Below, piece after piece: positions 3,729 through 64,000 of a DNA stretch of 64,000 nucleotides (positions are counted from its first letter, which is position 1; every line of letters starts with the position of its first letter). The position numbers were made by a program, and so were the translations under genes. Source of the stretch: Gemmatimonadota bacterium. Its GTDB lineage: Bacteria > JAAXHH01. The DNA lies in contig VXTP01000008.1 in the NCBI GenBank assembly GCA_009837395.1, forward strand, positions 1 through 64,000. The letters are read 5' to 3'. Below the pieces are notes generated by a model. It did no database searches and was not told the DNA's origin. It was given only the letters and a program-made list of their open reading frames with translations.

Positions 3729-3851
3729 GAGGTTCGTCCTTGAGGCAGGTACCGCAGTTCACCTGTTGCGGACGGGTGGGGTCCTGCCTGATGAGTGTCT
3801 TACGGGCTTCAAAGTGGGAATGAAGATAAGCGACTACCCTGGAAAAATAGG

Positions 3852-3881
3852 TTGATAAGAACCACCGGCGCAAGGTATTTT
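3852..3881 (+). promoter_or_regulatory. candidate sigma70-type promoter for serA
   Basis: TTGATA at 3852-3857 and TATTTT at 3876-3881 are separated by 18 bp, in the AT-richer divergent spacer between dnaE and serA. This is a consensus match by eye only. The start of serA lies about 55 bp downstream. Confidence 0.35.
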
Positions 3882-3935
3882 ACGTTTTTTTCCGGCGGGT
3901 CTGAGCACGATCGTAAAAGGAGTACCCGGCGCGTC

Positions 3936-5564
3936 ATGCATCACGTTATCGTCCTCGACAAACTGGCCCGGAAAGGGCTCGAACGGCTCACCGGGGCGAG
4001 TGAAGTATCCCACGAAGTGCGTACTGGCCTCGACGGAGAAGCGCTGCGCGAGGCCCTCATGGAATACGACGGCGCCATCTGCCGGAGCGACACGAAGATC
4101 ATGGCGGACGTGCTGAAAGGCAACGCGCGCCTGCGCGGTATCGTGCGCGCGGGCGTGGGCACGGACAACATCGACCGGGTTGCGGCGACCCGGCAGGGCA
4201 TCGTGGTCATGAACACGCCGACCGGCAATACCCTGAGCACGGCGGAGCACACCTTCACCCTCATTGCGGCCCTTTCGCGCAACATCGCGCCGGCGAACCG
4301 GAGTCTCATGGAAGGACGGTGGGACCGCGGCGCGTTCACGGGGGTCCAGTTGGCCGGCAAGACCCTGGGCATCATCGGCATGGGCCGCATCGGCCGGGAG
4401 GTCGCCGCGCGGGCGCAGGCCTTCGCCATGCGCGTCATCGGTTTCGACCCCTTTCTTTCGCCCGATCAGGCCGCCAAGCTGGGCGTGGAGTACGTCGACG
4501 AAGTGCGCGACCTGCTGCCCGAGGTGGATTACCTGACCGTGCATACGCCGCTGACGCCGGAGACCCGCCACCTGGTGAGCCACGAGGAGATCGAACTGCT
4601 CAAACCGGGCGCGCGGCTGGTCAACTGCGCCCGCGGCGGAATCTACGACGAGGAAGCGTTGATCCGGGGCCTCGAATCCGGGAAGCTGGCCGGCGTGGCG
4701 CTGGACGTCTACGAAGAGGAGCCCTGTGTCGACAGCCCGCTGTTTCACATGCCCGGCGTGCTGTGCACCCCCCATCTCGGGGCGAGTACGGAAGAGGCGC
4801 AGGCCGACGTCGCAGTGGAAGCCGTGGACCTCCTGGTCAACTTTCTGGTCACCGGGGAAGTCCGCCACGCCGTGAACGCCGTCACCATCGATTCGAATAC
4901 GTACCAGACACTGGGCGGCTATCTCGACGTGGCCTACCGGCTGGGCATCCTGCTGTCCCAGTGGCACAGCGGGGGGCCGCGCGCGTGCAGGCTGACCTAC
5001 CGCGGCAAGGTGGTCGACGAGAACACGCGCCTGCTCACCTCCGCTTTCTGTGCGGGGCTGCTCGAGGACGCCCTCGACGAGGAGGTCAATATCGTCAACG
5101 GCGAGATGCTGCTCCGGGAGCGGGGCATCCACCTGACGGAACAGACCCGCAGCGCGGCCGGATTCTTCTCCTCGGCCATCAGCGTGGAGATCGACTGCGC
5201 CGACGAGACGTACCGGGCCGACGGAACGGTTTTCGGAAACAACATGCCGAGGTTGATCCGCCTGGGCGAACACCGCATGGAGGCCTACCTGGACGGCAAC
5301 CTCCTGGTCTTCCACCACAGCGACGTGCCCGGCATCGTCGGCGCCATCGGCGACACCTTCGGACGGTACAAGGTCAACATCGCCCAGATGGCCGTGGGGA
5401 GGCTGGGGAACGAGCCAGGCGGCAAGGCCGTGGGCGTGCTGAACCTGGACGACGTCCCGCCCCAGGAGTCCATCGACGAGATCCTGGGCCACCCGGCCAT
5501 CAACAGTGCGCGGTTCATCCGGCTGCCCGCCCACGGCGCCTTGCCGCCCTGGATGCCCGGGTGA
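3936..5564 (+). CDS. serA: D-3-phosphoglycerate dehydrogenase (SerA, ACT-domain form)
   Basis: Oxidises 3-phosphoglycerate to 3-phosphohydroxypyruvate, the first step of serine synthesis, with NAD. From the ATG at 3936 the protein is 542 residues, the long type 1 form. The Rossmann motif GIIGMGRIG is near residue 145. The catalytic arginine (NCARGG, about 230), glutamate (YEEEP, about 260) and histidine (TPHLGASTEEA, about 278) are all present. An intervening ASB-type domain is followed by a C-terminal ACT domain (from about residue 452), which usually binds serine as feedback inhibitor. The frame is open further upstream, but the upstream residues are unlike the family. AAGGAG at 3917-3922 lies 13 nt before this ATG, slightly long. 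pdxJ follows 130 bp downstream; serine and pyridoxal phosphate synthesis often sit together. Confidence 0.94.
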   Translation: MHHVIVLDKLARKGLERLTGASEVSHEVRTGLDGEALREALMEYDGAICRSDTKIMADVLKGNARLRGIVRAGVGTDNIDRVAATRQGIVVMNTPTGNTLSTAEHTFTLIAALSRNIAPANRSLMEGRWDRGAFTGVQLAGKTLGIIGMGRIGREVAARAQAFAMRVIGFDPFLSPDQAAKLGVEYVDEVRDLLPEVDYLTVHTPLTPETRHLVSHEEIELLKPGARLVNCARGGIYDEEALIRGLESGKLAGVALDVYEEEPCVDSPLFHMPGVLCTPHLGASTEEAQADVAVEAVDLLVNFLVTGEVRHAVNAVTIDSNTYQTLGGYLDVAYRLGILLSQWHSGGPRACRLTYRGKVVDENTRLLTSAFCAGLLEDALDEEVNIVNGEMLLRERGIHLTEQTRSAAGFFSSAISVEIDCADETYRADGTVFGNNMPRLIRLGEHRMEAYLDGNLLVFHHSDVPGIVGAIGDTFGRYKVNIAQMAVGRLGNEPGGKAVGVLNLDDVPPQESIDEILGHPAINSARFIRLPAHGALPPWMPG

Positions 5565-15011: not shown

Positions 15012-16061
15012 ATGAGAGTATTCAGGATTCAAGCAGACAACAGGTTTGTTAATTTCAATCAATTACCTTTCAATGCTGAACATGATGAATCGACCTTGGA
15101 AGACTGGCTGGAAAAAAACACTGACAAGATTCTGGATGACAGTCGGCTGTTGGTGATAGGACGCCAGGTCCATACTTCCCTTGGTGGATCCATTGATCTG
15201 CTAGGGATAGATAGCCAAGGAGACATGGTTGTAGTTGAACTAAAACGAGACAGAACTCCACGGGAAACTGTAGCTCAGGCTCTCGAATATGCATCCTACA
15301 TAGCGGAGCTTGAGTTTGACGAACTGGAAGAAATCTGTCGTTCATACACGAAAGACGAAACACTGAATCTCACGGAGCATCATAGAGATCACTTCAGCCT
15401 CGGCACCAACATCGCGGTATCGTTCAACAAGGATCAGCGGTTGGTAATCGTAGGCCAGCAAATCTCGCCCGGGATTATAGAAACCGCTCGTTTTCTCGGC
15501 TCTAAGGGTGTACGGGTAACCTGTGTCGAGTTTACCTATTTTATATCTGAAGACGGCGAAGATCGCCTGATGACTCAGGAGACGGTAGTTGAAGGGAAGG
15601 CCGAAAAACTTACCCCATCTTCTTCCATGTCAAAACCGATCATCGACGCTGATAAACTACTCCAAGATTGCGATGAAAACAGTCGTGAGGTGTTTTCACG
15701 TTTTCTTGACTGGTCCAAAGAGAATGAAATGGCCATCAATTGGGGTTCCAGCGGATGTTCATTAAATGTGCGAATAAACAACACGAATGTCGGAGTCATG
15801 TGGATGCAGACAACTGGTTCTCCACCGAAACATTACATCTATGTCGGTTTAAAGGATAAACGGTTCGTAGGTAAAAGCGCTGTACCGGATGAGTTGATAG
15901 ACGAACTTTGGGAGAAGGGGCTATCTACAGGGGTTTTCACCCCAACGGATCAGTATCTGAAGTGTCAGGTATCTCGTAAACTTGAAGAAAACGAACTGGA
16001 TTCACTTGTTGAATACTGTAATTCCATTGCCCAGGTTATTGACAGATATGGACTGAGATGA
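15012..16061 (+). CDS. NucS-like (DUF91-type) PD-(D/E)XK nuclease domain protein
   Basis: Protein of 349 residues whose N-terminal half looks like the archaeal/actinobacterial NucS (EndoMS) catalytic domain. After a conserved WLEKNTDKIL segment comes GGSIDLLGID (Asp near residue 62), then VVVELKRDRTPRE (Glu and Lys near 77-79). These together give the D...ExK nuclease core, followed by the QALEYASYI helix. The C-terminal half (about 200-349) is a separate domain of unknown function with several conserved-looking tryptophans. Composition is markedly more AT-rich than the surrounding metabolic genes, suggesting transfer. It has no partner except a small secreted protein downstream, so it may be a stand-alone repair or defence nuclease. 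Confidence 0.72.
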   Translation: MRVFRIQADNRFVNFNQLPFNAEHDESTLEDWLEKNTDKILDDSRLLVIGRQVHTSLGGSIDLLGIDSQGDMVVVELKRDRTPRETVAQALEYASYIAELEFDELEEICRSYTKDETLNLTEHHRDHFSLGTNIAVSFNKDQRLVIVGQQISPGIIETARFLGSKGVRVTCVEFTYFISEDGEDRLMTQETVVEGKAEKLTPSSSMSKPIIDADKLLQDCDENSREVFSRFLDWSKENEMAINWGSSGCSLNVRINNTNVGVMWMQTTGSPPKHYIYVGLKDKRFVGKSAVPDELIDELWEKGLSTGVFTPTDQYLKCQVSRKLEENELDSLVEYCNSIAQVIDRYGLR

Positions 16062-25612: not shown

Positions 25613-26710
25613 TTGCTTTTTCCCACCTACGACGAAATCGCAAGGGATCCCAAGCAGCTGGAAGTTTGGGAATGGCCCCTTGACAGTTCTCTTTTCGTAG
25701 TTGGACCTCCAGGCTCTGGCAAGACAACGTTGGCCGTCATGCGAGCCAATTTGACGGCTCGAGAGACAGGTAGGCCAACGGTGCTCGTTACCTACAACCG
25801 CATGTTAAGGCGTTTGATGGAGTTACATAATAAAGGAGGTTTGCATCCTGTAACCATGCATGCCTATATCGGCGACGATTATCGCAGTCGTATCGGCAAC
25901 GCCCCCCCGACTACGCACGACGATTATGGTTTCGATTGGCAATCAATTCTCGCCAGATCGCGTCAGGAGGAAATCGAACCCTATTTGTCGCATGTCGTCG
26001 TAGACGAAGGACAGGATCTCCCTTCAGGTTTTCATGCGTATCTCAGTCGTCACTGCACCCATGTTATCACGGTGTTCGCCGACGAAGACCAAGCGCTTTC
26101 GGATCGGCGCACGACATTGCTTCAAATCCAGAAATGGGCAGGTCTTGACAGACCTATAATCCTTAAACGTAATCACAGAAATCGACCGGAAGTCGCACGT
26201 CTGGCGGAACACTTCCACAGTGGGGGTCTGCCAGCGGCTTCGGTCGTTCGCGAACCATCCGGTGAACTGCCTCGCATAGAAAGGACGGAGGGAATCGGCC
26301 ACACAGCATCAAAGGTGGCGAATTGGCTAAGGGTTCGTGGAGGTTCGGTGGGTGTGATCGTCTACCAGAACGATACGGGAGAGGAAATACACCGTCAGCT
26401 TACGCAACGCCTTTCGGGTTCCCGTGTCGATGTCTATCGGCACGAGCAGAAAAACGACGCCGGAATAAACGTTCTGGAAGACGGTGTTACGGTGATAAAC
26501 AAGGAATCTGTCAAGGGGCAGGAATTTCGCTGGGTCTTCATCCTGGAACTCGAGCGGTTTATTCCCTGTTCCAGTGACACCGAACTCCGCGCAATGTATA
26601 TGATGTGCTCTCGAGCCCGCGAGAATCTCACCCTGGTATATGGACCTGCTGAACTTTCTGAAGCTGCTTTTCGGTCATTACCGGGACCAACGATCCTGGA
26701 ACATAGTTGA
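25613..26710 (+). CDS. superfamily 1 (UvrD-like) helicase-type ATPase, compact form
   Basis: 365 residues, short for a helicase but with the SF1 motifs in order. Walker A is GPPGSGKTT near residue 31, and motif Ia-like VLVTYNRMLRRLM follows. Walker B is VVVDEGQD (128-135), and ADEDQALSDRR is motif III-like. RNHRNRPEV is motif IV. Motif V is VTVINKESVKGQEFRWVFI and motif VI is MMCSRARENLTLVYG. The 1B/2B accessory domains of UvrD are essentially absent, as in many defence-associated UvrD-like ATPases. The start is TTG at 25613. It is first in a co-directional three-gene cassette of unusual, AT-richer composition. Confidence 0.82.
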   Translation: MLFPTYDEIARDPKQLEVWEWPLDSSLFVVGPPGSGKTTLAVMRANLTARETGRPTVLVTYNRMLRRLMELHNKGGLHPVTMHAYIGDDYRSRIGNAPPTTHDDYGFDWQSILARSRQEEIEPYLSHVVVDEGQDLPSGFHAYLSRHCTHVITVFADEDQALSDRRTTLLQIQKWAGLDRPIILKRNHRNRPEVARLAEHFHSGGLPAASVVREPSGELPRIERTEGIGHTASKVANWLRVRGGSVGVIVYQNDTGEEIHRQLTQRLSGSRVDVYRHEQKNDAGINVLEDGVTVINKESVKGQEFRWVFILELERFIPCSSDTELRAMYMMCSRARENLTLVYGPAELSEAAFRSLPGPTILEHS

Positions 26711-26725
26711 TCCTGGAACATAGTT
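26692..26725 (+). repeat. exact 17-bp tandem duplication across the helicase stop
   Basis: GATCCTGGAACATAGTT occurs at 26692-26708 and again at 26709-26725 without mismatch. The helicase stop TGA (26708-26710) is at the junction. The perfect match indicates a recent event. Confidence 0.92.
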
Positions 26726-26782
26726 GATGTAGTGATATAGTATTGGGGCAAACGCACAAAGGCATTCGATAGAGGTTAGACT

Positions 26783-29230
26783 TTGGCTAACGACAATCCT
26801 GGTATTCAATCTGAGCTGAATTTCGGCACCAAGCAAGAAGGCCCAGCAGCTACAGGTGACCCACCAACCACCGATGGTGCTTCTACAGGTGATAGCGCCG
26901 CGACAGACGATACCGGACAGGCAGATAACCAAATGGAGACCGCAGCAGACCAATCTTCTGCCGAGAATGAGTCTCGTGGACGCGATCTGTCGACCTCAGA
27001 AGCAGTCGTCACCTACAAGGCAAAACAGGTCGCGGCACGCTGTTTAGGATTGACCGTGCCTCACAGACGTCTGTTAGATGCCCTGCAAAATGGCTGGTTA
27101 CCTCCTCCATCTGAGGCAACAGGACATATGCTTGGGGCTGGTGTTTTCATTCGGGAACCCGGTGAACCGGGAAAACATGCAATCCTAGTTTGTCTGAAAC
27201 TTGATGTAAGGAAGTTGCCGAACCTCCCCGCTTACGTATTCCGTGATGAAGCCTGGTCCTACGCGTCACCTACCGAAACCATACTCGAGGAGGAAATGTG
27301 GTTCTGGCCGGGGATGCTGCCTACTTCCGCGATCACGGAGTTGTCCGTGCCGACAAACGAGGAACGCATACGACTCATCGGCATGGCTGATCAATTATCC
27401 AACGTGGCCCTTCCCGTAGACGTTCAAATCACGCAGGCTGAAGACGTTTTGCAGGGCCCTTTTCCACAGTGGTCACAGCAATCGACACCAAATGACCATC
27501 AAACGTTAACTGAGATACCGGCTGGGATGGATGCGATTCATGGCGCTTTGGCCATGGCGGTGTGGGCGGTTCCGCGAATAGATCCCTGGCTTGACTTGCT
27601 CGTGGCGAGTTTGTCCGACGACCAGGAACTATTGGCCGAATTAGCAGTGCGCACAGCGGCCCCATGGTGGCGTGTACCCCCATGGGTACGCGGTCAAGGC
27701 CGCAGTGAACCACTCAAGCAATCAGTACCAGAAATTGCGCAGGAAGTTCAGGATGCACTCTGGTGCGCGGCCATTGATGTATTGGGAGACACATCGGGGA
27801 ATCCAGGTAGAAATCCTCAAATCTTGGCCAAACGCATTGCCGATATGGCCCGTGATGCCGTATCCGAAAGGGTACCGAGAATCTCTGATTGGCTAGACGA
27901 TCTGTGCCGAGTTCTTCGGGCGGAATCTACAATTCGACCTAATCTGTGGTGTGATTTCCCAGTTGGATTGGCGATCCAGCTCGTGCTGGCACGTCAAGAA
28001 CCAATCACATTCAAGAATTGGCCCCGTGAACAACCGAATCTGCCGCCCAGTGTTTGGTGGTCAGCTGCGGTCCTCTGTGGATGGGGCCATGGTTACAGAC
28101 GATTGGATACCTGCTTTCGCGGCGAACCGTCACTCCAGGAAGCGCTTTCCGTTCACGCGCTACGTACGAGCTCACCCGACCATCACGGGATCGCGTGGCC
28201 GTCTATGGAGGGAAAACCCGGATGGAGAAAATCCGGGGAAGGGTTTGAATTGCTTTGGGGAAAGGTGACTATTGCCCGCAAATCGGATACTGTGCGCAGT
28301 AGATGGTACGCCGCGGATTTCTCCGACGAACGCATCAGACAGGAGGCTTTCCGTGTTGCGAAGAATCTGGGCTGGCCATGCGGACATCGTCGGGTTCGGT
28401 TGCCGTCGGAAAGCAGGATAATCGTCAAAGGTTCCTATGTCATGGAAGTAGGCGAAGGAAAGCGTTCGACTGAGATTCGAGGTGAGATGGATATTCAACT
28501 ACCATCGAATACCGAGGTTGATGAGGTACTGGATAAAAACGCCTTCCGCGAACACATCGCCAGTGCGCCCGGCAGTCTTACAGAACCTCCCGCACCGCAT
28601 ACTCCGGCGCTACATGTCGGAACGAACGCAGAGGAATCACCAAAGGATAGCACTCTCGTCCCTGGCCTTAGATACGTACCCGGTTTCCTGAACGAAGCCG
28701 AGGAGATAGAAATAACTGGAAAGATCGACGAAGATCAGGCGAACTGGAGCAATGTACTAAAGCGGCGCGTGCAACACTATGGCTGGCGATACGACTATAA
28801 AGCTGGTCAGATCGACCGGCGAATGCGCATCGGACCGCTACCGGGTTGGGCAGCGAAAATCGCCCGGCGGCTTGTCGATCAAGGTCTGGTTCCCGATGAG
28901 CCAGACCAGTTAATCGTCAACGAATACCGGGGTAAACAGGGCATAGCCAAGCACGTGGACAGCATAGCGAGCTTTAACGACTATATCGCCATGATCAGCT
29001 TGCTGGAATCCTGGGAGATGGTTTTCAGAAAGGGATTGGAAAAGCGTCCGGTCCAGCTCGAAAGAGGTAGCGCAGCTGTTATGTCAGGTCCGTCCCGAAC
29101 CCAGTGGACCCACGAGATACCTGCTAGGCAAAACGAGCTGGGGCCAATAATGCCTGACGGAAAGAGGAAGAAAGTACCGCGAGAACGCCGGCTGTCACTT
29201 ACTTTTCGTAGAGTAACGGGAAGCACGTAG
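26783..29230 (+). CDS. large protein with C-terminal AlkB-type Fe(II)/2-oxoglutarate dioxygenase domain
   Basis: 815 residues from a TTG at 26783, with AGAGG 7 nt upstream. Residues 1-70 are acidic, low-complexity and Ser/Thr-rich. Residues 75-620 are an unrecognised region with conserved-looking Trp clusters (APWWRVPPWVRGQ, PSVWWSAAVLCGWGHGYRR, RSRWYAADF). The C-terminal 170 residues are an AlkB fold. YVPGFLNEAEE opens the domain, VNEYRGKQGIAKHVDS gives the iron ligands HxD near 724-726, and WTHEIP near 775 gives the distal His. RERRLSLTFRRV carries the 2-oxoglutarate-binding arginines. The AlkB part could demethylate or hydroxylate a nucleic-acid base. Between a helicase and a methyltransferase it suggests a nucleic-acid modification or defence cassette; that role is inference. 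Confidence 0.8.
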   Translation: MANDNPGIQSELNFGTKQEGPAATGDPPTTDGASTGDSAATDDTGQADNQMETAADQSSAENESRGRDLSTSEAVVTYKAKQVAARCLGLTVPHRRLLDALQNGWLPPPSEATGHMLGAGVFIREPGEPGKHAILVCLKLDVRKLPNLPAYVFRDEAWSYASPTETILEEEMWFWPGMLPTSAITELSVPTNEERIRLIGMADQLSNVALPVDVQITQAEDVLQGPFPQWSQQSTPNDHQTLTEIPAGMDAIHGALAMAVWAVPRIDPWLDLLVASLSDDQELLAELAVRTAAPWWRVPPWVRGQGRSEPLKQSVPEIAQEVQDALWCAAIDVLGDTSGNPGRNPQILAKRIADMARDAVSERVPRISDWLDDLCRVLRAESTIRPNLWCDFPVGLAIQLVLARQEPITFKNWPREQPNLPPSVWWSAAVLCGWGHGYRRLDTCFRGEPSLQEALSVHALRTSSPDHHGIAWPSMEGKPGWRKSGEGFELLWGKVTIARKSDTVRSRWYAADFSDERIRQEAFRVAKNLGWPCGHRRVRLPSESRIIVKGSYVMEVGEGKRSTEIRGEMDIQLPSNTEVDEVLDKNAFREHIASAPGSLTEPPAPHTPALHVGTNAEESPKDSTLVPGLRYVPGFLNEAEEIEITGKIDEDQANWSNVLKRRVQHYGWRYDYKAGQIDRRMRIGPLPGWAAKIARRLVDQGLVPDEPDQLIVNEYRGKQGIAKHVDSIASFNDYIAMISLLESWEMVFRKGLEKRPVQLERGSAAVMSGPSRTQWTHEIPARQNELGPIMPDGKRKKVPRERRLSLTFRRVTGST

Positions 29231-29264
29231 AAGGATTATTGGAAACTCGTTCAGACCGTGGTAC

Positions 29265-30179
29265 TTGCGGGATTTCGGACCTGAAAGCGGCGACCCCGAC
29301 CCCGATACTGACAACGTTGCAATCAGGGATGTACTTTTGAACACGAGTAACTGTTCAACGGTCACGTTTCCATCGTGGCTTGAATCACTGAGATCAATGG
29401 AAATACTCGAAAAGGTCAGAAATGATCCTCGTACTACAGCGGACAAGATCCTTGGTGTCAGCAGATCGATCGCCCTTGACTCGGTGATCGGCAGAGGGCA
29501 GGCGGATTTCGACAGCCCTTGGGACCATCTCACTCCATACGATCGCGTACTCCTGTACGCCTACTTCAATCAGAGAGGACACTTGGAAGAGCTTGTCGAG
29601 GCGTTTCGGCAACTATTCCCAGATGGTTCTCCTCCCAACAAGCCGATAGTCGTCGATATTGGGTGTGGTCCTTGTACTGGCGGGCTCGCGTTCGCAGGAA
29701 TGTGCAAGGAAGTCAAACAGTTCGTCTATATCGGCGTGGACCGGTCGGAAGCCATGCGAGACTTTGGCGAAAGTCTTGCGGCCGCCGCGCCGCAAATGGA
29801 TCAATCCCATCGTCAGTGGGCAAGCACGTTGCCAAAAGTCGCTTGGAATGATGCCCCGGGCTGGAGACCGGTGTTCGTCATCGTTTCATACCTGCTTGCG
29901 AGTCCGACACTGGATTCTGTCGACCGGCTCATCAGGGACCTTGATGGACTACTGACAAAAATCGGGCGCGGACGGGCAACGGTGATTTACACGAACTCGA
30001 CCAACACTACACCTAACCGCCGTTTTCCTGAGTTCCGTGACGCGCTTTTCGACCATGGATTTTCGCTTTTTGCCGACGATACAGGTACAATTCCAGTTGA
30101 ACGGTCGGGTGAGACTGTACCACGCAAACTGCGATATGCCCTGTTTGATCGACCGGAGAGACGCATCTTGGAACTCTGA
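29265..30179 (+). CDS. SAM-dependent methyltransferase, class I
   Basis: About 304 residues. VDIGCGPCTGGLAFAG near residue 128 is the glycine-rich SAM loop, and YIGVDRSEAM supplies the acidic residue that binds the ribose. FVIVSYLLASPT is strand 4. No DPPY/NPPY motif of an amino-DNA methyltransferase and no Pro-Cys motif of a cytosine methyltransferase is visible, so a DNA base target is not indicated. The start is uncertain: TTG at 29265 is the first conventional codon, while AAGGA at 29231-29235 sits just before ATT codons in the same frame. It is the last gene of the helicase-AlkB cassette. Confidence 0.75.
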   Translation: MRDFGPESGDPDPDTDNVAIRDVLLNTSNCSTVTFPSWLESLRSMEILEKVRNDPRTTADKILGVSRSIALDSVIGRGQADFDSPWDHLTPYDRVLLYAYFNQRGHLEELVEAFRQLFPDGSPPNKPIVVDIGCGPCTGGLAFAGMCKEVKQFVYIGVDRSEAMRDFGESLAAAAPQMDQSHRQWASTLPKVAWNDAPGWRPVFVIVSYLLASPTLDSVDRLIRDLDGLLTKIGRGRATVIYTNSTNTTPNRRFPEFRDALFDHGFSLFADDTGTIPVERSGETVPRKLRYALFDRPERRILEL

Positions 30180-55387: not shown

Positions 55388-55528
55388 GGTTCTTCCTTCC
55401 TGCCTAGAGACCAAATCGGGGGAGTAATGGGAAAGGGAATACCGTTCAGGTCGAGTAACTGGACGGGTTAGTTTCTACCGAAGGCATGCCGCCTGCGAAT
55501 CTGAATCAGCAATCCTAAACGAATCAAG

Positions 55529-58500
55529 CTATTCCTGATCTAGACTCTCGATCTTTTTCTCATTCTCACGAACAGCGGTTCTTGTAACTCCGCCATGCTG
55601 CGTAATGCGAGGACGGCATTTAACCTTAACTGCGCCTCTCGTGAATGCTTCATCTGAAGCTTTACTCGACCACACATAAGCTTCGCCTGTGTCGAGTTTA
55701 TTCATTTTTTCAGAAGTTAACTCATTTAGGGAGGCATTAGCCTTCTGAATATGCTTCAGCCAAGCCGGCGAGTTGAATTTGTGCATGATTATCTGCGATG
55801 AAAGCTCAATCAGCGAGACCGGGACCGATGGTGGGTCCTGAGAGGCTACCATGATGCTGGTTCCTTTGTGTCGCATCTCACGAACGACCTCGACCAAACC
55901 GGAAACCAAATCATCGTTTTCGATGTACTTATGTGCCTCATCAAATACTACCAGTTTGTTAAACGCGCTTCTCTGATAGGTTGCTTCTGAGAAAATCTGC
56001 AACATCACCACGAACAGACCAAGCGCCTCGTCCTTTTCAATGTACTCGTCGCGCAAATCCACGATTATCAAACGGCCCGGGCGAATTAGATCCTGTAGTT
56101 TTTGGTTGTCGTTGATGTATTCGTTAGCGAACTGAAGGCGTGTTAGGGCTAACTCTTTCAAGTGGTCGGACAAAACCGAGTTTTCAATTCCTGCTCGTAG
56201 GCTGTCTAACGTCAGGTTCTCCCTTAGACTCCTCATGATGAGGTTCATTTGCCGCAAATACATGCTCTGACTGCCAATCGCGCCCATTAAAAACTTCCAG
56301 TGAGCCGCCTTGAGTTCTGATGCAGAAAATGCAATTGGCTTAATCTCGATATCTGGGTATTCGGACCGTCTGTCATCCACCTTGTTAGCCGGTGTAAGGA
56401 TCAACACATCCCTAAGAGCCTCGGGATTAGCGTTGTAACGCTCACGAAGGATACGGATCTCGTCATCGACCGAGTTGGCCTGGATCATAGAAGTAAACTC
56501 CGGAGCATATTCCTGAGTCGGACTGTAATGGAAAATAACCGTAGCAAGTGGGCTTGGAAGTACATTGATGCGCTGAAACGGCATGGAGGCCATCTCTATC
56601 ACCGTTCCAAGGGTGTAGCTCTTGCCGCCGCCTTGTACCCCAAAAAGACTTAGCGTGTGGGTGTGGTTGAGATCCAGCGCGACCTTTCTGCCGGAAACCT
56701 CTCCGAGTAATCCAAATTGCGGTGAGTCGTCTCCGACGCCAAGTACGATGTCGTAACTGGTTTCTGCTTGAGTTGTAGCTACAGGTGCTGGATGTTCTGG
56801 GATTTCTGGCGAGGGTTCGGCAGTTGTTTCCGATTCTGCGGTTGCTCCCGGTTCACTAGCCCCGGTGGTGAGGTGTTCGACCTCTTTTCCCTCTTCAGGT
56901 GCATGCGCCAGGATTTCAGACTGTTCTTCTGATTCCTTGTGAGCGGACTCTGGTGTTTCTGCTGCATCTGTAGATGACTTTGGAATCAGTGGGGCTTCTA
57001 GCTCATCTTGCCAGCGCTCATTCACTGTCCAAGACGTTGAGCGTTCTCTCTTGGGTGCTATAAAGGTCGCCGTCTCGAGCTTCGGGACGTTCGGTATTCG
57101 TTGTTCCCTGAGAAGATACGCCGACTGTTCTTCCTCAATCTGGGATGAGACGGGTGTACGACAGCTTTCCAGCAAGGTCTGAACAAGATCCTTGCCGATG
57201 CGGTGAAATTCAATGCCCACCTCATTTTCTGGTTCCTCAGTTCCGGCCTTGTCGAAGTCGAAGATCAATGCGCAACGTCGGAACTGAAGCGAATAGCCCT
57301 GCTCTATGGTTTCGAGTAAACTTCGAGCTTCCTGAGCGGCGGTGGTGTCAAAGATCTGGTAACGCATAGAGCGCTCCAAATAGAAACGAAGGATCTGTGC
57401 TAACTCACGGCTTTTGAGCAACCTATCCGGCCGATCTGGCTTTTTAAGTTCTGGGTCGAAGTGACGCTGGAGAATGCGCTCACTCTGACCGATTTGTGTT
57501 GAAATCCGCTCCTTCAGTTGGTTGAAAGCTGCGAAGTCTCCCACCTGAGAATAGCATTTCACCTCAACCAAATTGCAGGTTATTGTTCTGGAGTTTAAAT
57601 CCAGGTCGAACAGCCCCAAGTCGGTACGGCGAAGGCTGATGGCATCATTGAAGTCATCCGACTCACCGCTCGTGCGGTAAAGGTCGGTGTGTGCATCCAG
57701 AGGAACAATGACTTGGTTGCTTAACGCGCCTTGATATTCAAGGTAGATCCGCGCCAAAGCCAGACCAAGTGCTTCAGCCTGTTGTGTGCGTGCAGAGATA
57801 AGTTTTAAAGCAAGTTGGCCAGATAGCGACCGCAGGTGTGCCAAGATTTGAACCAACTGCTCACCGTCGGCGGACAAACCGCGCTCCAGCAATACCGGCT
57901 TCAGCATCGCCTCTAGTTCATCTTTCGAGCGCGAGGAAAGGATCAGGTTATGTGTCGTCCGAGAACTGTTTCCCGGTACATAATCAATCAGGTATTCCGG
58001 TCTGTTCTTCCGTCCGCCATGGTCGAAGAACTCAATCCCCATATTACGGTCGATGGTGAATACCCAATCACTGATCTGGTGGACTTCATAGATAAGTTCT
58101 CTTTGTGCTACGTCTAGGCTAAGAGTCACGACTGGCACGGCTTTAAAGCTGGCACCAGAGGTAGCGACCGCTGAGGTAGCAAAGCATAGGTGCCGGCTCA
58201 AGTCGGACAACAAATCGAAGCACGCTGCATGGTTGTCAGTATCGAGGGGCCGTCCAACAATCGGACCGTTTCTCCAGAAGGTACCCGAGTCATCATCTAT
58301 GAATTCGGTGTCGAAATCCTGTATCAGCCCATGCAGCGAGGTTACCCCCATTGGCTTTTCGGTAATTGAAAGATCCTCAGCGGGAAATACATCAAGGAGC
58401 ATACTGATGTGTGCGGAATATCTCTTTGCATTTACCCGGAAGTCTTTCAACGCGTGCTTGGCCAAGTTCAGCTTTGAGAACAGATGACTGCCTGTTGAGG

Positions 58501-61039
58501 TAGCAAACGCATCGGCGGCCTCGTTTACCGTGGTTCCGGGACGTATCATCGATTCAAGCGCTTCACCCAAAATCGGCGAATCGGGGTCTGATGTGAAGAG
58601 TCGGATGTCATAACGCAGATCGGAATATTCGCGTTTCTGCTGGAGTGACAACAGCGCATCCGCAACCAACGATCCGGCTCCTGGGTTGAAAACGTTCAGT
58701 GACAACTCTCTCACATATGGATGCTGGGAGAGATACCGCTCAATCCTGTCTGCAATGACCTTCCCGGATATACCGTTTCCCGCCATGGTGGGCTCAGCCA
58801 ATCCCAGCGCCGTAGAGATTTCTGCCATCAGGCCACGCAAATTCTCCTCAGTTGTTGGCGCATAGAGCGCCCAGAATGCATTCAGGTTGTCGACCGGAGT
58901 AAAGATACGACCATCTTCGACTGGAACGCCAACTGGATAGGCATACGGAACAAAACCATCCAGCAGCGCGGAACGGACATGAGGGAGATGGCTTTTTCCG
59001 CCTGCTTTGATTTTTTCGATCCAATCCTTCCCCAAGGTAACCCAGTTGTTTAGCCACAAGGCGCGTAGCGGATGAGTTGGCGAGACCAGGACCGCTTCCC
59101 GATTCTTTCCGCGAAAATCTGTCAAAACGACGTGAACGGAATCAACGGCCAAAATGTCTCGTAAAGCTTGTAGGTGTTGCTGACGCTCGGTACCAGAAGT
59201 CGTCTCAGCCTGATGGCTCAGATTCCTTACCAAGTCCAGGTAGCTTTCCGCATACGTGAGGCATTCCTTTTCCGAGTCTCGGAAGGAAAGTCCCTGCATG
59301 ATAAGCTCGGTAGTGTCATTACGCACTGCTTTAAAAAACACCTCTCGAGCGGAAAGAAACGAGGCCATCGCAGCTGACGACGGTAGTGTGAGCCCGACCA
59401 CGGAAGGTGACTCGGCAGTAGCCAGATTGATCTGCATTCGACGGCCCGACAAGTGTTTGGGCTCCGCCAAGATGCGCTGTTCTATAGTCTTGAGTGCGCG
59501 CGAAAGTGGAATTTGCACAGCGCCTTCACGACTGAATTTGGCTAACAAGGTTTCTTGACGGGCGATCTTCCTCGAACGACCACCTTCACCCCACACGACG
59601 CTGTTGATGGCTATCTCGTCCGGATCGCGCTCATCTCCCAAGGCTGTAAACTGTAGCGCGAAGCGCCCGTGCTCCAGACTCTGTTCGATGGGAACTGCTC
59701 TCTGCGGCGGCTCTTCATCGATGCTTCCGCTTGGTAGAACATAGAAAGGCTCGCTTTCGTAGGAGCGTTTAGCACCATCGAAGCCGGAATCCGATTCCAG
59801 TGGAATTGGATCACAATCGGACGTCCAGGGCAGTATACGGATGTAATGCCATCCTTCCTCGAATTCGATCTTATTTAACTTAGTAAGACTGGTGCTGCAT
59901 TGCAGGCGACTAGGCGTCCAGGTTTTGACCTTCTTGGATTTACCTACAGGACCATCACTTTGAGAAATGATCTGAACCGTAAAGTGGTCGAGTCCATTGA
60001 CCTTACCAGGATGAGGTTTGACTTCAAACACCACACTCATTTTTCGGCGGTCATTGGGAACCAGAACCTGTTGTCCAATCAGGCCAGAGAATGTGTCATC
60101 AGTCTCATCCTCCTGCACGACCGGCAAGTCGGTTTCCAGAACCGTTAGCAGTACTTTGTCTAGGGAAATCTCCTCTTGGAACGTCCATTTGTCGAAAGAA
60201 ACGCCCCACCAGTTTTGGTCGGTTGCTATAGGCGGCGTCCAAAATTCCGGCTCTTGGACTTCGTATTTCTCAAAGTAGTCAAACAGGCGCGATTCCAGAG
60301 TCTTGTCCCTCAGTCCAAGATCGGCGATTCTGCCTCGAACTGACTTGTATGAGTTCATTAGATTCCGGACACAGTCGAGATTTCGACGAATCTTGCCATT
60401 GACTATGGTGGGATCGGCAAAGAGTTTGAAATCTGGAATCAATGTCAATTCATACAGACTAGCCCCGAGAGTCTCACCATCAATCCCGTTCTCGAGCGCA
60501 GTGAGTAGGTATCGCACACGGGAAACATCGTCGGCAGGAAGCCATTCCTCTTCGTTGAGAAAAGTCAATAGATCACGTACATGACCGACCAGCGATGCAG
60601 GGAGCCGATCAAGCAGCGAGTCTATGAGGTCCTGGTAGATATCGGTGAATGTCAGTTCTTCGAAGGTCGCTATTCCAAATGAATCTTCAGCGCTGGTGCG
60701 AAGCGAGGTTGGTATGAAGACCAGCAAAGGCTGACGTAGTTCGCCGTTTACGTCAGGATTACGTAGTTCAACGAGTTTGGTGGAAGTGACTCGGAGGGGT
60801 TGATCCTCATTGTCCTGACTGGCTAGTATAAAGATGTTTCGATCGGGTTGGTTTCGGCGTAGTTCCTTGCATGCTGATTCCATCACATCGTAATCGAGAT
60901 CGGTAACTCGCATGCAATGACCTGGTCCACGTTCACCCAGAATCGCTTCGATACGAGGGCACAGTAGGCAAGCAATCGCTGCGTTCAGTTTATCCTTGGA
61001 AAGCTCGCTAAACTCGTTACTCAATTGCACCTCTTCCAC
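55529..61039 (-). CDS. DptH-like HerA-family ATPase with internal PD-(D/E)XK-like motif
   Basis: 1836-residue protein starting at a GTG 4 bp after the upstream stop. Residues 1-300 are an N-terminal domain with LLVFIPTSLRTSAEDSFG near 105. The long middle is unrecognised. TDLGLFDLDLN then VEVKCY (about 1140-1162) reads as the Asp...Glu-x-Lys core of a restriction-endonuclease fold. An acidic, Pro/Glu-rich linker (about 1340-1420) leads to a HerA/FtsK ATPase domain: GVQGGGKSYT near 1470 (Walker A), then LVVFDEAHKYIE near 1698 (Walker B), and MVASQDPPSVP (sensor). Size, architecture and operon position fit DptH of phosphorothioate-dependent restriction; membership in another HerA defence family is possible. 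Confidence 0.68.
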   Translation of the reverse strand: MEEVQLSNEFSELSKDKLNAAIACLLCPRIEAILGERGPGHCMRVTDLDYDVMESACKELRRNQPDRNIFILASQDNEDQPLRVTSTKLVELRNPDVNGELRQPLLVFIPTSLRTSAEDSFGIATFEELTFTDIYQDLIDSLLDRLPASLVGHVRDLLTFLNEEEWLPADDVSRVRYLLTALENGIDGETLGASLYELTLIPDFKLFADPTIVNGKIRRNLDCVRNLMNSYKSVRGRIADLGLRDKTLESRLFDYFEKYEVQEPEFWTPPIATDQNWWGVSFDKWTFQEEISLDKVLLTVLETDLPVVQEDETDDTFSGLIGQQVLVPNDRRKMSVVFEVKPHPGKVNGLDHFTVQIISQSDGPVGKSKKVKTWTPSRLQCSTSLTKLNKIEFEEGWHYIRILPWTSDCDPIPLESDSGFDGAKRSYESEPFYVLPSGSIDEEPPQRAVPIEQSLEHGRFALQFTALGDERDPDEIAINSVVWGEGGRSRKIARQETLLAKFSREGAVQIPLSRALKTIEQRILAEPKHLSGRRMQINLATAESPSVVGLTLPSSAAMASFLSAREVFFKAVRNDTTELIMQGLSFRDSEKECLTYAESYLDLVRNLSHQAETTSGTERQQHLQALRDILAVDSVHVVLTDFRGKNREAVLVSPTHPLRALWLNNWVTLGKDWIEKIKAGGKSHLPHVRSALLDGFVPYAYPVGVPVEDGRIFTPVDNLNAFWALYAPTTEENLRGLMAEISTALGLAEPTMAGNGISGKVIADRIERYLSQHPYVRELSLNVFNPGAGSLVADALLSLQQKREYSDLRYDIRLFTSDPDSPILGEALESMIRPGTTVNEAADAFATSTGSHLFSKLNLAKHALKDFRVNAKRYSAHISMLLDVFPAEDLSITEKPMGVTSLHGLIQDFDTEFIDDDSGTFWRNGPIVGRPLDTDNHAACFDLLSDLSRHLCFATSAVATSGASFKAVPVVTLSLDVAQRELIYEVHQISDWVFTIDRNMGIEFFDHGGRKNRPEYLIDYVPGNSSRTTHNLILSSRSKDELEAMLKPVLLERGLSADGEQLVQILAHLRSLSGQLALKLISARTQQAEALGLALARIYLEYQGALSNQVIVPLDAHTDLYRTSGESDDFNDAISLRRTDLGLFDLDLNSRTITCNLVEVKCYSQVGDFAAFNQLKERISTQIGQSERILQRHFDPELKKPDRPDRLLKSRELAQILRFYLERSMRYQIFDTTAAQEARSLLETIEQGYSLQFRRCALIFDFDKAGTEEPENEVGIEFHRIGKDLVQTLLESCRTPVSSQIEEEQSAYLLREQRIPNVPKLETATFIAPKRERSTSWTVNERWQDELEAPLIPKSSTDAAETPESAHKESEEQSEILAHAPEEGKEVEHLTTGASEPGATAESETTAEPSPEIPEHPAPVATTQAETSYDIVLGVGDDSPQFGLLGEVSGRKVALDLNHTHTLSLFGVQGGGKSYTLGTVIEMASMPFQRINVLPSPLATVIFHYSPTQEYAPEFTSMIQANSVDDEIRILRERYNANPEALRDVLILTPANKVDDRRSEYPDIEIKPIAFSASELKAAHWKFLMGAIGSQSMYLRQMNLIMRSLRENLTLDSLRAGIENSVLSDHLKELALTRLQFANEYINDNQKLQDLIRPGRLIIVDLRDEYIEKDEALGLFVVMLQIFSEATYQRSAFNKLVVFDEAHKYIENDDLVSGLVEVVREMRHKGTSIMVASQDPPSVPVSLIELSSQIIMHKFNSPAWLKHIQKANASLNELTSEKMNKLDTGEAYVWSSKASDEAFTRGAVKVKCRPRITQHGGVTRTAVRENEKKIESLDQE

Positions 61040-61043
61040 TTAC

Positions 61044-62702
61044 CTATTCTGTCTTTTCCCCGATCGCATATCGAGGCGATACCTTCTGGGCGACAAAAGC
61101 ATCCGACAGATCTTCGTAGAATCCAATTTCACGTAGACGACGCTTGAAGGCTTCAAGGTTGAAGCGCAAGGCACGTCTGTCAAGAATGCTGCTGTTAGTC
61201 TGGGCCCCTTTCGGCAACTGTTCGATGTGAATACCGTACCGGTTTCTTAGAAAAACCAACAACTCCTCGATGCGGATCTCACGGGTCACAAAGCGCCCAT
61301 CGGCCTGGGTGAGTACGGCCACCTGAAGCAGTACTTCCAGTAGCTTACTACCAAGCACAAACCTTCGTGGACTTCCCTTAGTACGGGACTGGGCTAACAT
61401 GCCGTTCTCTTTGTTTTTCAGCAGAAGAGAATCCAAACACTCGGTGATGTACTGGTGGTGATACTTACCGCGATACGCCATCAGGATTTCTATGAAGGAC
61501 TCGAATTCATCAAGCCCCATAGAGGAAACCTCCCTGATTTCCGGATCAACGTTCTCATTCCCAGAGGTGGACTCCTCGATTAGGCTGGCCAGACGAAATC
61601 TAAAGTAGGCTTGCCGTTCAGCCTGATGCTCGGGTTTCAATAAAGCCACCAGATCGCTGACGCTAAACTCGCCACCTTGGGGCGATTCGAGCTTGCTTGC
61701 CTTTTTCTTGAGGTATTCGGCCATCTCATCGAGCTTCTTTACGACGTAATTCGCCTGCACATAGGCCGGGATCTGACGATAGAAACGGTCTGTAGACTTA
61801 CGAGCCAATTCGGCCATATGCTCATTGTTGACATCCCCCATGTCCACGATCAGTACCACCCGATAGGGACAGCATGTCATAACGTTGTTGAGGTCAGAAT
61901 TGACCGGACATTCCTTGGTGGTGCAGAGATCATCGCATGAGCGCTGTTTTACCAGTTTGGGCAGCATCTGTAACAGCTTGAGGTGATAGAGCGCCAGATG
62001 GAATGCCATTAGCGTTTTAAGGTAATCCACTAGCACTGAACGCGGAACGTAGGGTTCGTAGGCCAGAAGTCGTAGAATGTCGTCAGACATGATATCTGCC
62101 TGGCCGATACACAGCGGTCGGAAACGTGAAGGCTCCTTGGAGTCTTTCATGTCCTGGGTAACTTGGTGATCTAGGCGCAGGATGGCCTGGGTTTCCACAT
62201 CCACTGATGCGTTTGGGTCGTATCGGTCCGTCACCAAGTCGATTCCTGGGAAAAAGAAGCGCTTCAGGGCGTCTCGCACTGCTTGACCTTTGCCTTTACG
62301 AGCGTAGTAAAGCATCCAATATATCTGCTCGGCTGTACCGTAATCACGCGTATGCCGAGCATTGCGGAACTTATAGGTGTTTCCATGCAACGGCCTTGGG
62401 GCGGCAAGCGCCTGATTACTCTTCCCACGATTGACCATGTCCATCAGATCAGTCTCGATCCAGGCACGGGTGATCTCAGAATGCTTGTCAAACCCTGAGA
62501 ACCACTCTGGATGCTCAAGAAAATCCGCTAGAAACTCTTCGACCGTGAGATCCCTGCCACGCGGAGGCCTACGACTTGCATATCCGTCCCATTTTAGGCG
62601 CGGAAACAGCATCGTTAGGACGCGATCCATCTCGATATGCTTGAAGTCGACATACGTAACCTTAGGGATTCTGAACTCCCTGTCGCGTCCCTTAATTGGC
62701 AT
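61044..62702 (-). CDS. cysteine-containing middle protein of the HerA operon (DptG position)
   Basis: 552 residues from the ATG at 62702, which overlaps the end of the upstream gene by 11 bp; the next gene starts 4 bp after its stop, so all three are coupled. Its sequence is mostly helical. At about 285-310 a cysteine cluster (CDDLCTTKECPV, then CCPYR 12 residues on) suggests a zinc or iron-sulfur site, directly before a hydrophobic strand VVLIVDMGDVNNEH. The C-terminus is basic and looks like a winged-helix region (IRIEELLVFLRNRYGIHIEQL). I do not recognise the family from its sequence; the DptG suggestion rests on gene order only, and it is longer than typical DptG. Confidence 0.6.
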   Translation of the reverse strand: MPIKGRDREFRIPKVTYVDFKHIEMDRVLTMLFPRLKWDGYASRRPPRGRDLTVEEFLADFLEHPEWFSGFDKHSEITRAWIETDLMDMVNRGKSNQALAAPRPLHGNTYKFRNARHTRDYGTAEQIYWMLYYARKGKGQAVRDALKRFFFPGIDLVTDRYDPNASVDVETQAILRLDHQVTQDMKDSKEPSRFRPLCIGQADIMSDDILRLLAYEPYVPRSVLVDYLKTLMAFHLALYHLKLLQMLPKLVKQRSCDDLCTTKECPVNSDLNNVMTCCPYRVVLIVDMGDVNNEHMAELARKSTDRFYRQIPAYVQANYVVKKLDEMAEYLKKKASKLESPQGGEFSVSDLVALLKPEHQAERQAYFRFRLASLIEESTSGNENVDPEIREVSSMGLDEFESFIEILMAYRGKYHHQYITECLDSLLLKNKENGMLAQSRTKGSPRRFVLGSKLLEVLLQVAVLTQADGRFVTREIRIEELLVFLRNRYGIHIEQLPKGAQTNSSILDRRALRFNLEAFKRRLREIGFYEDLSDAFVAQKVSPRYAIGEKTE

Positions 62703-64000
62703 TGTAGTCAATTCCTTTGTCCGAAACGCTCATCTGAAGCAAACCGTCGTCATGACGATGGATTTCGTAAAACTTGTGCCCCGTCGTAGTTAGCAATACC
62801 TCTTGGTAGGGCATCGAGGCCAAGCGGTTTTTGAAGACGGTGAGACTCAGGTAGAAGCCTTCTTGTTCCTCGACACTTGGGCGATAACCGAAGTTGAGCC
62901 GCATCAGCATTTCATAAATATCGAGATTGATACGCAGGCTGGCCTTGTGTCCTTCCCCAGAGTCGTATAGCAACATCAGGGCTTGAGAAAGGCACTCGAG
63001 AAATGGATGCGCCACTGAGTCTTTTTCGGTACGGAGTGTGAAACGGTTGCCTTCAAACAGGCGGTAACTACGGATCGTTCCCTTATCTACCTGGCGGACA
63101 CGAAGGGCTAATTGATTGCCTAGTCGCACTGGATCGCTCAATCCTTCGCCCCGATTGATGGCGCGGAGAATAGCTGTAACCTCTTGGGCACTTTTTGTTC
63201 CTGACTTGTTAATTGCGTCGAGAAAGGGATTGATGCTTCTGTAAGGCAGCATCTCTTTCCATCCGCTGTCGCGTCGCTCAAAGTAATGGCGACGTCGCGT
63301 GTGTGAGAGGTAGTTTCGATGTTTGGCGATCTGGCGCAGGTTATTCTTCGAAGTGTAACCTCGTGGTAGTTTGTGAAACAACGATTCCAACAGCTCTTCA
63401 TCATACCCAGTTCTTTCGGCGAAAGAAAAGCGACTTACAACATTAGTCTTAGGGTTGAGGAACTCAAGTTCACGATCTAGATCGGGGTTGCTGACTTCTG
63501 CGACATCTATCTCGCGAAGCAGGGAAATCAGACGGTCAATGGAGCCTTTTGCACCGCCAAGCCATGAATTGAAATAAAAACCGTCAAGGATGTTATTCTG
63601 ATTCTCTTCGCCGCTGTTTTTATAAAGCTGGTGAATACCGTCACAGTCCCGCGTGCCCACCAGCATGAAGGCCAGTGCTGAACGTAGGTCACGCATAGTG
63701 ATGTGTAATCGGCCGCGCAGGTGGGTGATTGTGTAAAGCGTCTTCAGTCGTTCGAGCACCTTGGGGCCAACAACCGGATCCTGGAAGGTCCGGGCATTAT
63801 GGTAGGAATAGCACTTGGCTTTGAGGTCGCACTTTTCGCAAGCCAGCCAGTAATCACGCTGCGTCATGCGAGCAATGAGACGCTCCAGAATCGAAGGTTG
63901 ATCTTTATCGAGTTCGGCGACCACTGAGCGCAGGTTGAGGTTGATGACCACAATCCCACCTTCGGGAGCTGCTCCGGACAGTCCCTGCTGGATCTGCTTT
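62692..64000 (-). CDS. DptF-like ATPase-associated protein, 5' end cut by the window
   Basis: The frame is open to base 64000, so the N-terminus, where a P-loop would be expected, is missing. The visible part starts with PEGGIVVINLNLRSVV, which looks like an ATPase core strand. A zinc-type CEKCDLKAKC motif and HLRGRLHITMRDLRSALAFML follow. The C-terminal RINLDIYEMLMRLNFGYRPS segment recalls the DptF tail as I remember it. It is first in the visible operon, with the second gene's start overlapping its stop. DptF is the best guess; a related defence ATPase is possible. Confidence 0.6.
   Translation of the reverse strand, partial: KQIQQGLSGAAPEGGIVVINLNLRSVVAELDKDQPSILERLIARMTQRDYWLACEKCDLKAKCYSYHNARTFQDPVVGPKVLERLKTLYTITHLRGRLHITMRDLRSALAFMLVGTRDCDGIHQLYKNSGEENQNNILDGFYFNSWLGGAKGSIDRLISLLREIDVAEVSNPDLDRELEFLNPKTNVVSRFSFAERTGYDEELLESLFHKLPRGYTSKNNLRQIAKHRNYLSHTRRRHYFERRDSGWKEMLPYRSINPFLDAINKSGTKSAQEVTAILRAINRGEGLSDPVRLGNQLALRVRQVDKGTIRSYRLFEGNRFTLRTEKDSVAHPFLECLSQALMLLYDSGEGHKASLRINLDIYEMLMRLNFGYRPSVEEQEGFYLSLTVFKNRLASMPYQEVLLTTTGHKFYEIHRHDDGLLQMSVSDKGIDYNAN

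What the first reader, a model, noticed from the sequence alone, without database searches (positions are those of the whole stretch)
55529..64000. Coupled three-gene HerA ATPase operon, DptFGH-like but with an unfamiliar middle gene
Three minus-strand genes overlap or lie 4 bp apart, in AT-richer DNA unlike the flanking metabolic genes. The order (DptF-like, middle protein, giant HerA ATPase) matches phosphorothioate-dependent restriction. The first protein's C-terminal INLxxxxMxRxxxGYRP pattern and the HerA protein's architecture agree. The middle protein is longer than DptG and carries a cysteine cluster I do not associate with that family, so the operon may be a divergent Dpt type or a separate defence system.
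Basis: partly seen in the sequence, partly recalled or inferred. Interest (0 to 1): 0.78.

Follow-up and report, generated by a model that had tools for sequence, protein, structure and literature searches.

The report
Six-gene methylation-associated phage-defence operon (MADS)
The three odd genes at the window's end are the last three of a six-gene, recently acquired anti-phage operon of a known type (MADS), in a form that carries a second, altered DNA methyltransferase where the standard form carries two other genes.

Summary
In detail: tightly coupled minus-strand genes in AT-richer DNA. But the "three-gene" operon is cut by the window end. On the contig (228,752 bp) it is six genes, 55,529-72,265. 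The "DptF-like" ORF is the C-terminal third of a 1,383-aa protein. NCBIfam equivalog models identify, all above curated cut-offs, MAD2, a second MAD2-like methyltransferase, MAD5 (HsdS-like), MAD6 (NERD nuclease, two kinases, DndF-like NTPase), MAD7 (the "unfamiliar middle gene") and MAD8 (nuclease plus HerA). This is the methylation-associated defense system, MADS. The operon is an insertion, absent from the same site in sampled congeners. The less expected part: the second methyltransferase ("mad2b") occupies the slot that holds mad3-mad4 in the standard system. It forms one clade with an invariant altered catalytic motif (NPWF, 26/26; MAD2 is NPPF, 39/39). The slot has been exchanged repeatedly, in three loci leaving mad2b remnants. 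By analogy with PacII M1M2S, MAD2+MAD2b+MAD5 probably form an asymmetric methyltransferase. Annotation pipelines already label both genes "mads2"; I could not read the founding MADS paper.

The parts
55529..61039 (-). mad8: 1,836-aa DndH-like protein; PD-(D/E)XK nuclease motif (D1145, E1159-x-K1161) and C-terminal HerA/FtsK ATPase (Walker A 1466-1474, Walker B 1699-1701)
   Evidence: NCBIfam NF047742 MAD8 238 bits (cut-off 175); PADLOC mad8 2e-42, DndH 1e-7; D1145, E1159, K1161 40/40 and Walker motifs near-invariant
   Evidence: NCBIfam NF047733 MAD7 669 bits (cut-off 410); PADLOC mad7 3e-114, SspG 1e-7; conservation
62692..64000 (-). mad6, C-terminal third only (whole gene: contig 62692-66843, 1,383 aa, runs off the window): DndF/SspF-like P-loop NTPase. 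The part outside the window holds a NERD nuclease domain, an inactive-looking kinase domain, an active-looking kinase domain and the Walker A
   Evidence: NF047741 MAD6 820 bits (cut-off 460); Pfam NERD 4e-17, Pkinase 2e-58; SspF 8e-21; full translation
55402..64000 (.). window part of the inserted segment (whole insert about contig 55402-72660, about 17.3 kb); mad5 (66844-68250), mad2b (68247-70265) and mad2 (70265-72265) lie beyond the window end
   Evidence: same-genus genomes have 256-336 bp between the flanking genes here; the flank alignments stop at 55389-55402 and at contig about 72661-72667

Best explanation
This is a horizontally acquired MADS (methylation-associated defense system) operon of the order mad2-mad2b-mad5-mad6-mad7-mad8. 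Inferred working: MAD2 and MAD2b pair on the HsdS-like MAD5 to form a type-I-like methyltransferase that marks host DNA at a bipartite site chosen by MAD5's two target-recognition domains. MAD6, MAD7 and MAD8 form the restriction machine. MAD8 translocates on DNA with its HerA/FtsK motor and cuts with its PD-(D/E)XK domain. MAD7 contributes DNA binding or discrimination, as DndG does. MAD6 senses nucleotide or protein signals through its DndF-like NTPase and kinase domains and adds a second nuclease (NERD). Unmarked phage DNA is attacked; marked host DNA is spared. Shown here: gene identities, domain content, conserved catalytic residues, intactness, foreign origin, and the mad2b/mad3-mad4 exchange. 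Inferred: complex formation, methylation site, and the order of events on infection.
For: NCBIfam equivalogs above cut-off for all six proteins: MAD2 1001 bits, second MTase 769 against the MAD2 model (cut-off 720), MAD5 487 (400), MAD6 820 (460), MAD7 669 (410), MAD8 238 (175). The same gene order is seen in over 20 loci across many phyla at 70-87% identity and in E. coli, where 10 of 5,426 genomes hold a close MAD7 and in both loci opened RefSeq itself writes mads1-mads2-mads2-mads5-mads6-mads7-mads8. Catalytic residues are conserved: NERD E46, D48, K63 (40/40) and D61 (38/40); kinase-2 H-x-D-x-K and DFN; MAD6 Walker A GNAGDGKT 40/40; MAD8 D1145 and E1159-x-K1161 40/40. MAD5 is far more variable (median 41% identity) than its neighbours (77-85%), as expected for a specificity subunit. 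The insert is missing at the same site in congeners. MAD6's fusion (NERD, inactive kinase, active kinase, DndF core with Asn in place of the Walker B Asp) is the architecture described for some DndF proteins in PMC10853773.
Against: mad1 (HTH regulator) was not found here and mad3-mad4 are absent, so this is not the full eight-gene set. MAD2b's active site is altered, so its methylating role is unproven. No methylome, expression or phage data exist for this organism. The founding MADS paper (Maestri 2024) is not in the library, so mechanism statements rest on homology and on my own knowledge of its abstract.
Confidence: 0.88

Rival explanations
1. Same MADS operon, but MAD2b is a catalytically dead partner: it completes the M-M-S clamp, only MAD2 methylates, and the mark is on one strand only.
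For: Motif IV is NPWF in 26/26 (second proline replaced by Trp), motif I is DC[SA][SC]GTGTF instead of DP[AS]CGTGGF, and the stem branch is very long (2.5 changes per site). One-strand marking exists in BREX and type ISP systems (own knowledge).
Against: The residues that hold the target amino group (Asn and first Pro), the SAM motif GTGxF and the pocket aromatics are invariant, which is more than a scaffold needs. In PacII both M subunits methylate (PMC9613975).
Confidence: 0.4
2. Same MADS operon, with MAD2b an active second methyltransferase making a different mark (m4C, or m6A on the other strand), as M2 does in PacII-type non-canonical type I systems.
For: A Foldseek search with the predicted MAD2b structure finds BsaXI, HsdM proteins and PacII M1M2S among the best hits (E 6e-22 to 4e-12). 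In PacII, M1 (NPPF) makes m6A and M2 (NPPY) makes m4C on opposite strands (PMC9613975). MAD2b keeps the Asn, the Pro and the aromatic ring.
Against: The change in MAD2b (P to W at the third position) is not the PacII change (F to Y at the fourth). No methylome was tested.
Confidence: 0.45
3. A divergent phosphorothioate system (Dpt/Dnd or Ssp).
For: Weak but real profile matches to SspF, SspG, DndF and DndH; same FGH order.
Against: The MADS models score far higher; methyltransferase and HsdS genes occupy the modification slot; dndB and dndC are not found anywhere in the 95.6%-complete genome.
Confidence: 0.02
4. A BREX/Pgl-type system, because MAD6 resembles the kinase PglW.
For: PglW profile 227 bits over residues 14-700 of MAD6.
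Against: That is far below the PglW cut-off (990 bits) and covers only the NERD and kinase part. In the operon no protein matched pglZ or brxC models, and PglX scored only a background methyltransferase match (at most 25 bits against cut-offs of 400 or more).
Confidence: 0.01
5. A decayed, non-functional island.
For: mad1 is missing and the composition is foreign; mad2b decay is seen in some relatives (L020, L022, L033).
Against: All six frames are full length with catalytic residues intact and with the overlaps seen in relatives.
Confidence: 0.05

Closest known systems
MADS, methylation-associated defense system (Maestri et al. 2024, Cell Host Microbe 32:1412; NCBIfam MAD1-MAD8)
   Same: mad2, mad5, mad6, mad7 and mad8 in the same order, all above equivalog cut-offs
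   Different: A second MAD2-like methyltransferase stands where mad3-mad4 stand in, for example, the Piscinibacter plasmid; no mad1 found here
Two-methyltransferase MADS loci in RefSeq E. coli (for example EC11)
   Same: Same gene order mads2-mads2-mads5-mads6-mads7-mads8, 74-85% identity for the conserved proteins
   Different: E. coli copies also carry mads1 and sit beside an integrase (and tRNA-Leu in EC11); here neither was found at the locus
DndFGH / SspFGH restriction modules (PMC10853773, PMC8092258)
   Same: MAD6 C-terminus, MAD7 C-terminus and MAD8 match SspF, SspG and DndH; MAD6 has the DndF features (Walker A; Asn in Walker B; N-terminal NERD plus inactive and active kinases, as described for some DndF); MAD8 has nuclease plus HerA like DndH
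   Different: Paired with methyltransferases, not phosphorothioation genes; sequence similarity is remote
PacII M1M2S non-canonical type I methyltransferase (PMC9613975)
   Same: Two different M subunits with one S subunit; one M has the standard NPPF motif, the other an altered catalytic motif
   Different: PacII M2 is NPPY; MAD2b is NPWF. PacII is coupled to an HsdR; here to MAD6-8
BREX PglW and PglX
   Same: MAD6 N-terminus resembles PglW; MAD2 is the same broad methyltransferase superfamily as PglX
   Different: No PglZ or BrxC; scores far below BREX cut-offs

Membership tests
MADS | MAD2 DNA methyltransferase (NF047738, cut-off 720 bits) | tested here: met
   1001 bits and 769 bits for two adjacent proteins
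MADS | MAD5 specificity subunit (NF047740, cut-off 400) | tested here: met
   487 bits
MADS | MAD6 kinase (NF047741, cut-off 460) | tested here: met
   820 bits
MADS | MAD7 (NF047733, cut-off 410) | tested here: met
   669 bits
MADS | MAD8 (NF047742, cut-off 175) | tested here: met
   238 bits
MADS | MAD1 HTH protein (NF047737, cut-off 80) | tested here: not met
   Best match in the genome 15.7 bits on another contig; no HTH ORF upstream of mad2. Two-methyltransferase MADS annotated by RefSeq (E. coli) do have it
MADS | MAD3 ATPase and MAD4 (NF047739, NF047734) between mad2 and mad5 | tested here: not met
   That slot holds mad2b; proteins scanned against NCBIfam gave no MAD3 or MAD4, tblastn with Piscinibacter MAD3/MAD4 gave none. 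RefSeq still annotates the proteins of such loci as MADS
MADS | Methylates host DNA and restricts unmethylated phage DNA | not testable with these tools
   No methylome or infection data for this organism
Dpt/Dnd or Ssp phosphorothioate system | Phosphorothioation genes (dndB, dndC) in the genome | tested here: not met
   TIGR03183 and TIGR03233: no match in the 95.6%-complete genome; sspBCD were not searched separately
DndFGH / SspFGH restriction superfamily | F, G and H homologues in order | tested here: met
   SspF 8e-21, SspG 1e-7 (C-terminus only), DndH 1e-7; Walker A and Asn-type Walker B in MAD6, nuclease plus HerA in MAD8
BREX | pglZ, brxC and pglX | tested here: not met
   No pglZ or brxC hits among the operon's proteins; PglX only background methyltransferase similarity, at most 25 bits
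Non-canonical type I M1M2S | Two M subunits with one S, M2 motif NPPY, HsdR | tested here: not met
   Two M-like and one S-like genes are present, but the motif is NPWF (26/26) and there is no HsdR among the six genes

The most novel reading that the evidence does not exclude
Two-methyltransferase MADS is a distinct, exchangeable subtype. mad2b, a paralogue with an unusual, invariant NPWF active site, replaces mad3-mad4 in the same slot and turns the mark-writing enzyme into an asymmetric MAD2-MAD2b-MAD5 trimer, with the second subunit either writing a different mark or acting as a non-writing reader. The slot between mad2 and mad5 is a general module-exchange site (mad3-mad4, mad2b, SoFic, or empty).
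Probability: 0.5. Interest if true: 0.6.

Novelty: new variant of a known kind. Interest (0 to 1): 0.4.

Why it matters
What is worth following is that the mark-writing half of MADS is modular. A conserved methyltransferase pair, one with a fixed but altered catalytic motif, stands in for an ATPase plus small protein, and public annotation hides this by calling both methyltransferases "mads2". It offers a direct test of what mad3-mad4 do and of how a Dnd-type restriction complex reads base methylation instead of phosphorothioate.

Tried and rejected
Phosphorothioate system (no dndB or dndC). BREX (scores far below cut-off). mad1 remnant upstream of mad2: tblastn with 24 mad1 homologues gave only chance-level matches. 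Phage or plasmid carriage of close relatives: no phage record, four plasmids, one viral contig for mad2b. MAD7 fold: AlphaFold model of moderate confidence (pLDDT 75, pTM 0.80), but no meaningful match in the PDB (best E about 1), so the fold says nothing about function. PDB by sequence for MAD7: none. An unbiased estimate of the share of the two-methyltransferase form failed: among 369 genomes of the class of the locus L009 only that genome passed the MAD7 cut-off. The 38 relatives were fetched with patterns taken from this window's MAD7, so their make-up is biased towards this variant. The founding paper could not be read.

Full report
1. Observation. The window's last three minus-strand genes are as described: 55529-61039 (1,836 aa), 61044-62711 (555 aa) and an open frame from 62692 upward; 4-bp gap, 20-bp overlap; G+C about 0.51 against 0.60-0.66 around them. 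The window is bases 1-64000 of a 228,752-base contig. Reading on shows that the third frame continues to 66843 (1,383 aa) and that three more genes follow in the same operon: 66844-68250, 68247-70265 and 70265-72265. The low-G+C stretch ends at about 72.7 kb.

2. Identity. NCBIfam equivalog models place every protein: MAD2 1001 bits, a second protein 769 bits against the same MAD2 model (cut-off 720), MAD5 487 (400), MAD6 820 (460), MAD7 669 (410), MAD8 238 (175). PADLOC agrees: mad2, mad5, mad6, mad7 and mad8 are each matched. This is MADS. The standard eight-gene order, seen on a Piscinibacter plasmid, is mad1 (HTH), mad2, mad3 (AAA ATPase), mad4, mad5, mad6, mad7, mad8. Whole MAD6 is 1,391 aa there, so the fusion here is normal, not special.

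3. Anatomy. MAD6: NERD nuclease (E46, D48, K63 40/40; D61 38/40), a first kinase domain with HRN instead of HRD in 37 of 40 (an inactive-looking copy), a second with H-x-D-x-K and DFN, then a P-loop domain with invariant GNAGDGKT, an AINEG strand and a Cys cluster CxxCx5C (40/40). A comparative study describes exactly this for some DndF proteins: NERD plus inactive and active kinases fused to a P-loop kinase whose Walker B has Asn, some with a Zn-binding insert (PMC10853773). MAD8 has an invariant D1145 and E1159-x-K1161 nuclease motif before a HerA/FtsK ATPase, as described for DndH. MAD7's C-terminus matches SspG. dndB and dndC are absent.

4. Foreign origin. Within the genus only this genome (1 of 12) has MAD7. 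In congeners the two flanking gene blocks lie 256-336 bp apart (for example G006 256, G007 257, G010 328), whereas here they are about 17.3 kb apart. The flanking alignments break at 55389-55402 and at about 72661-72667. Relatives of MAD7 at 70-86% identity come from Pseudomonadota, Thermodesulfobacteriota, Verrucomicrobiota, Acidobacteriota, Chloroflexota and others, which means frequent transfer between phyla.

5. The second methyltransferase. In 26 full-length sequences (this one included) it sits between mad2 and mad5 where mad3-mad4 sit in the standard form. It forms one clade (support 100) on a stem of 2.5 changes per site. MAD2 has motif IV NPPF in 39 of 39; mad2b has NPWF in 26 of 26, with motif I DC[SA][SC]GTGTF and pocket loop EGRYPTP against RGQYFTP. 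An active site altered in one fixed way and invariant among full-length copies points to function. The predicted structure (pLDDT 83) matches BsaXI, HsdM proteins and PacII M1M2S. PacII is a type I enzyme with two different M subunits, M1 (NPPF, m6A) and M2 (NPPY, m4C), acting asymmetrically (PMC9613975). This is the nearest working model for MAD2 + MAD2b + MAD5; it is an analogy, not a test.

6. The slot is exchanged. Besides mad2b and mad3-mad4 it holds a SoFic-type Fic protein in L020 and L041 or nothing (L006, L007, L022). On the mad2 tree the mad3-mad4 state needs 4 changes and on the MAD8 tree also 4, with at least 4 forced by well-supported branches in both; all states together need 8-9 changes where 3 would be the minimum. 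These are quick trees with long branches flagged, so the counts are approximate. Independent support: L034 carries mad3-mad4 plus a C-terminal remnant of mad2b (E 2e-16), L020 carries SoFic plus an N-terminal remnant (E 9e-21), and L022 an empty slot with a C-terminal remnant (E 1e-8). So mad2b has been replaced or lost more than once.

7. Specificity. MAD5 is 36-72% identical to the window copy (median 41%) while its neighbours' medians are 77-85%; the second half of the protein is the most variable. This fits a target-recognition subunit under diversification and suggests each host has its own site.

8. What is and is not new. The system is MADS, and RefSeq already annotates E. coli loci of this form as MADS (10 of 5,426 genomes hold a close MAD7; both loci opened have this layout), with both methyltransferases named mads2. 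I found no paper in the library that separates the two, but the founding paper and any non-open follow-up could not be read, so priority cannot be judged. The claim made here is limited to: an intact, horizontally acquired MADS of the two-methyltransferase form; mad2b is a distinct conserved family with an altered catalytic motif; and the slot is a module-exchange site.

Noticed in passing
window 25613-30179 (+): Another low-G+C block (0.53-0.54): UvrD/GajB-like helicase (365 aa), an 815-aa protein with a C-terminal AlkB-like 2OG-Fe(II) oxygenase domain, and a methyltransferase-like protein (304 aa), apparently one operon; possibly a DNA-repair or defence island.
   Followed up: partly
window 15012-16061 (+): 349-aa protein with a NucS-like nuclease domain, matching the candidate defence family PDC-S11 (1e-42), in a G+C dip.
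   Followed up: partly
L020 2956-4077; L041 3115-4239: A SoFic-type Fic protein, itself a known defence family (PADLOC SoFic 7e-111 for L020), sits in the mad2-mad5 slot of MADS operons.
   Followed up: partly
L021 1315-2442; L044 3343-4452: Two MADS operons carry an extra roughly 370-aa protein with a metallopeptidase-like HExxH stretch beside mad2b; no Pfam match for the L021 copy.
   Followed up: partly
L006 8375-24940: A Bacteroides plasmid MADS lacks mad3, mad4 and mad2b and is followed by a PP2C phosphatase and a Fic protein, a possible counterpart to the MAD6 kinase.
   Followed up: no
L046, L047 (E. coli): Two-methyltransferase MADS sits next to an integrase, beside tRNA-Leu in EC11, and upstream of the arc genes; 10 of 5,426 complete E. 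coli genomes carry a close MAD7.
   Followed up: partly
L014 about 3311-4437; L033 2462-4483: mad2b is disrupted by an IS3-like insertion in L014 and broken into three frames in L033, while the rest of the operon looks intact.
   Followed up: no
L057 7986-17227: A viral-collection contig (IMG/VR) carries mad2b followed by open frames of the sizes of mad5, mad6 and mad7, so these operons may ride on mobile elements.
   Followed up: no
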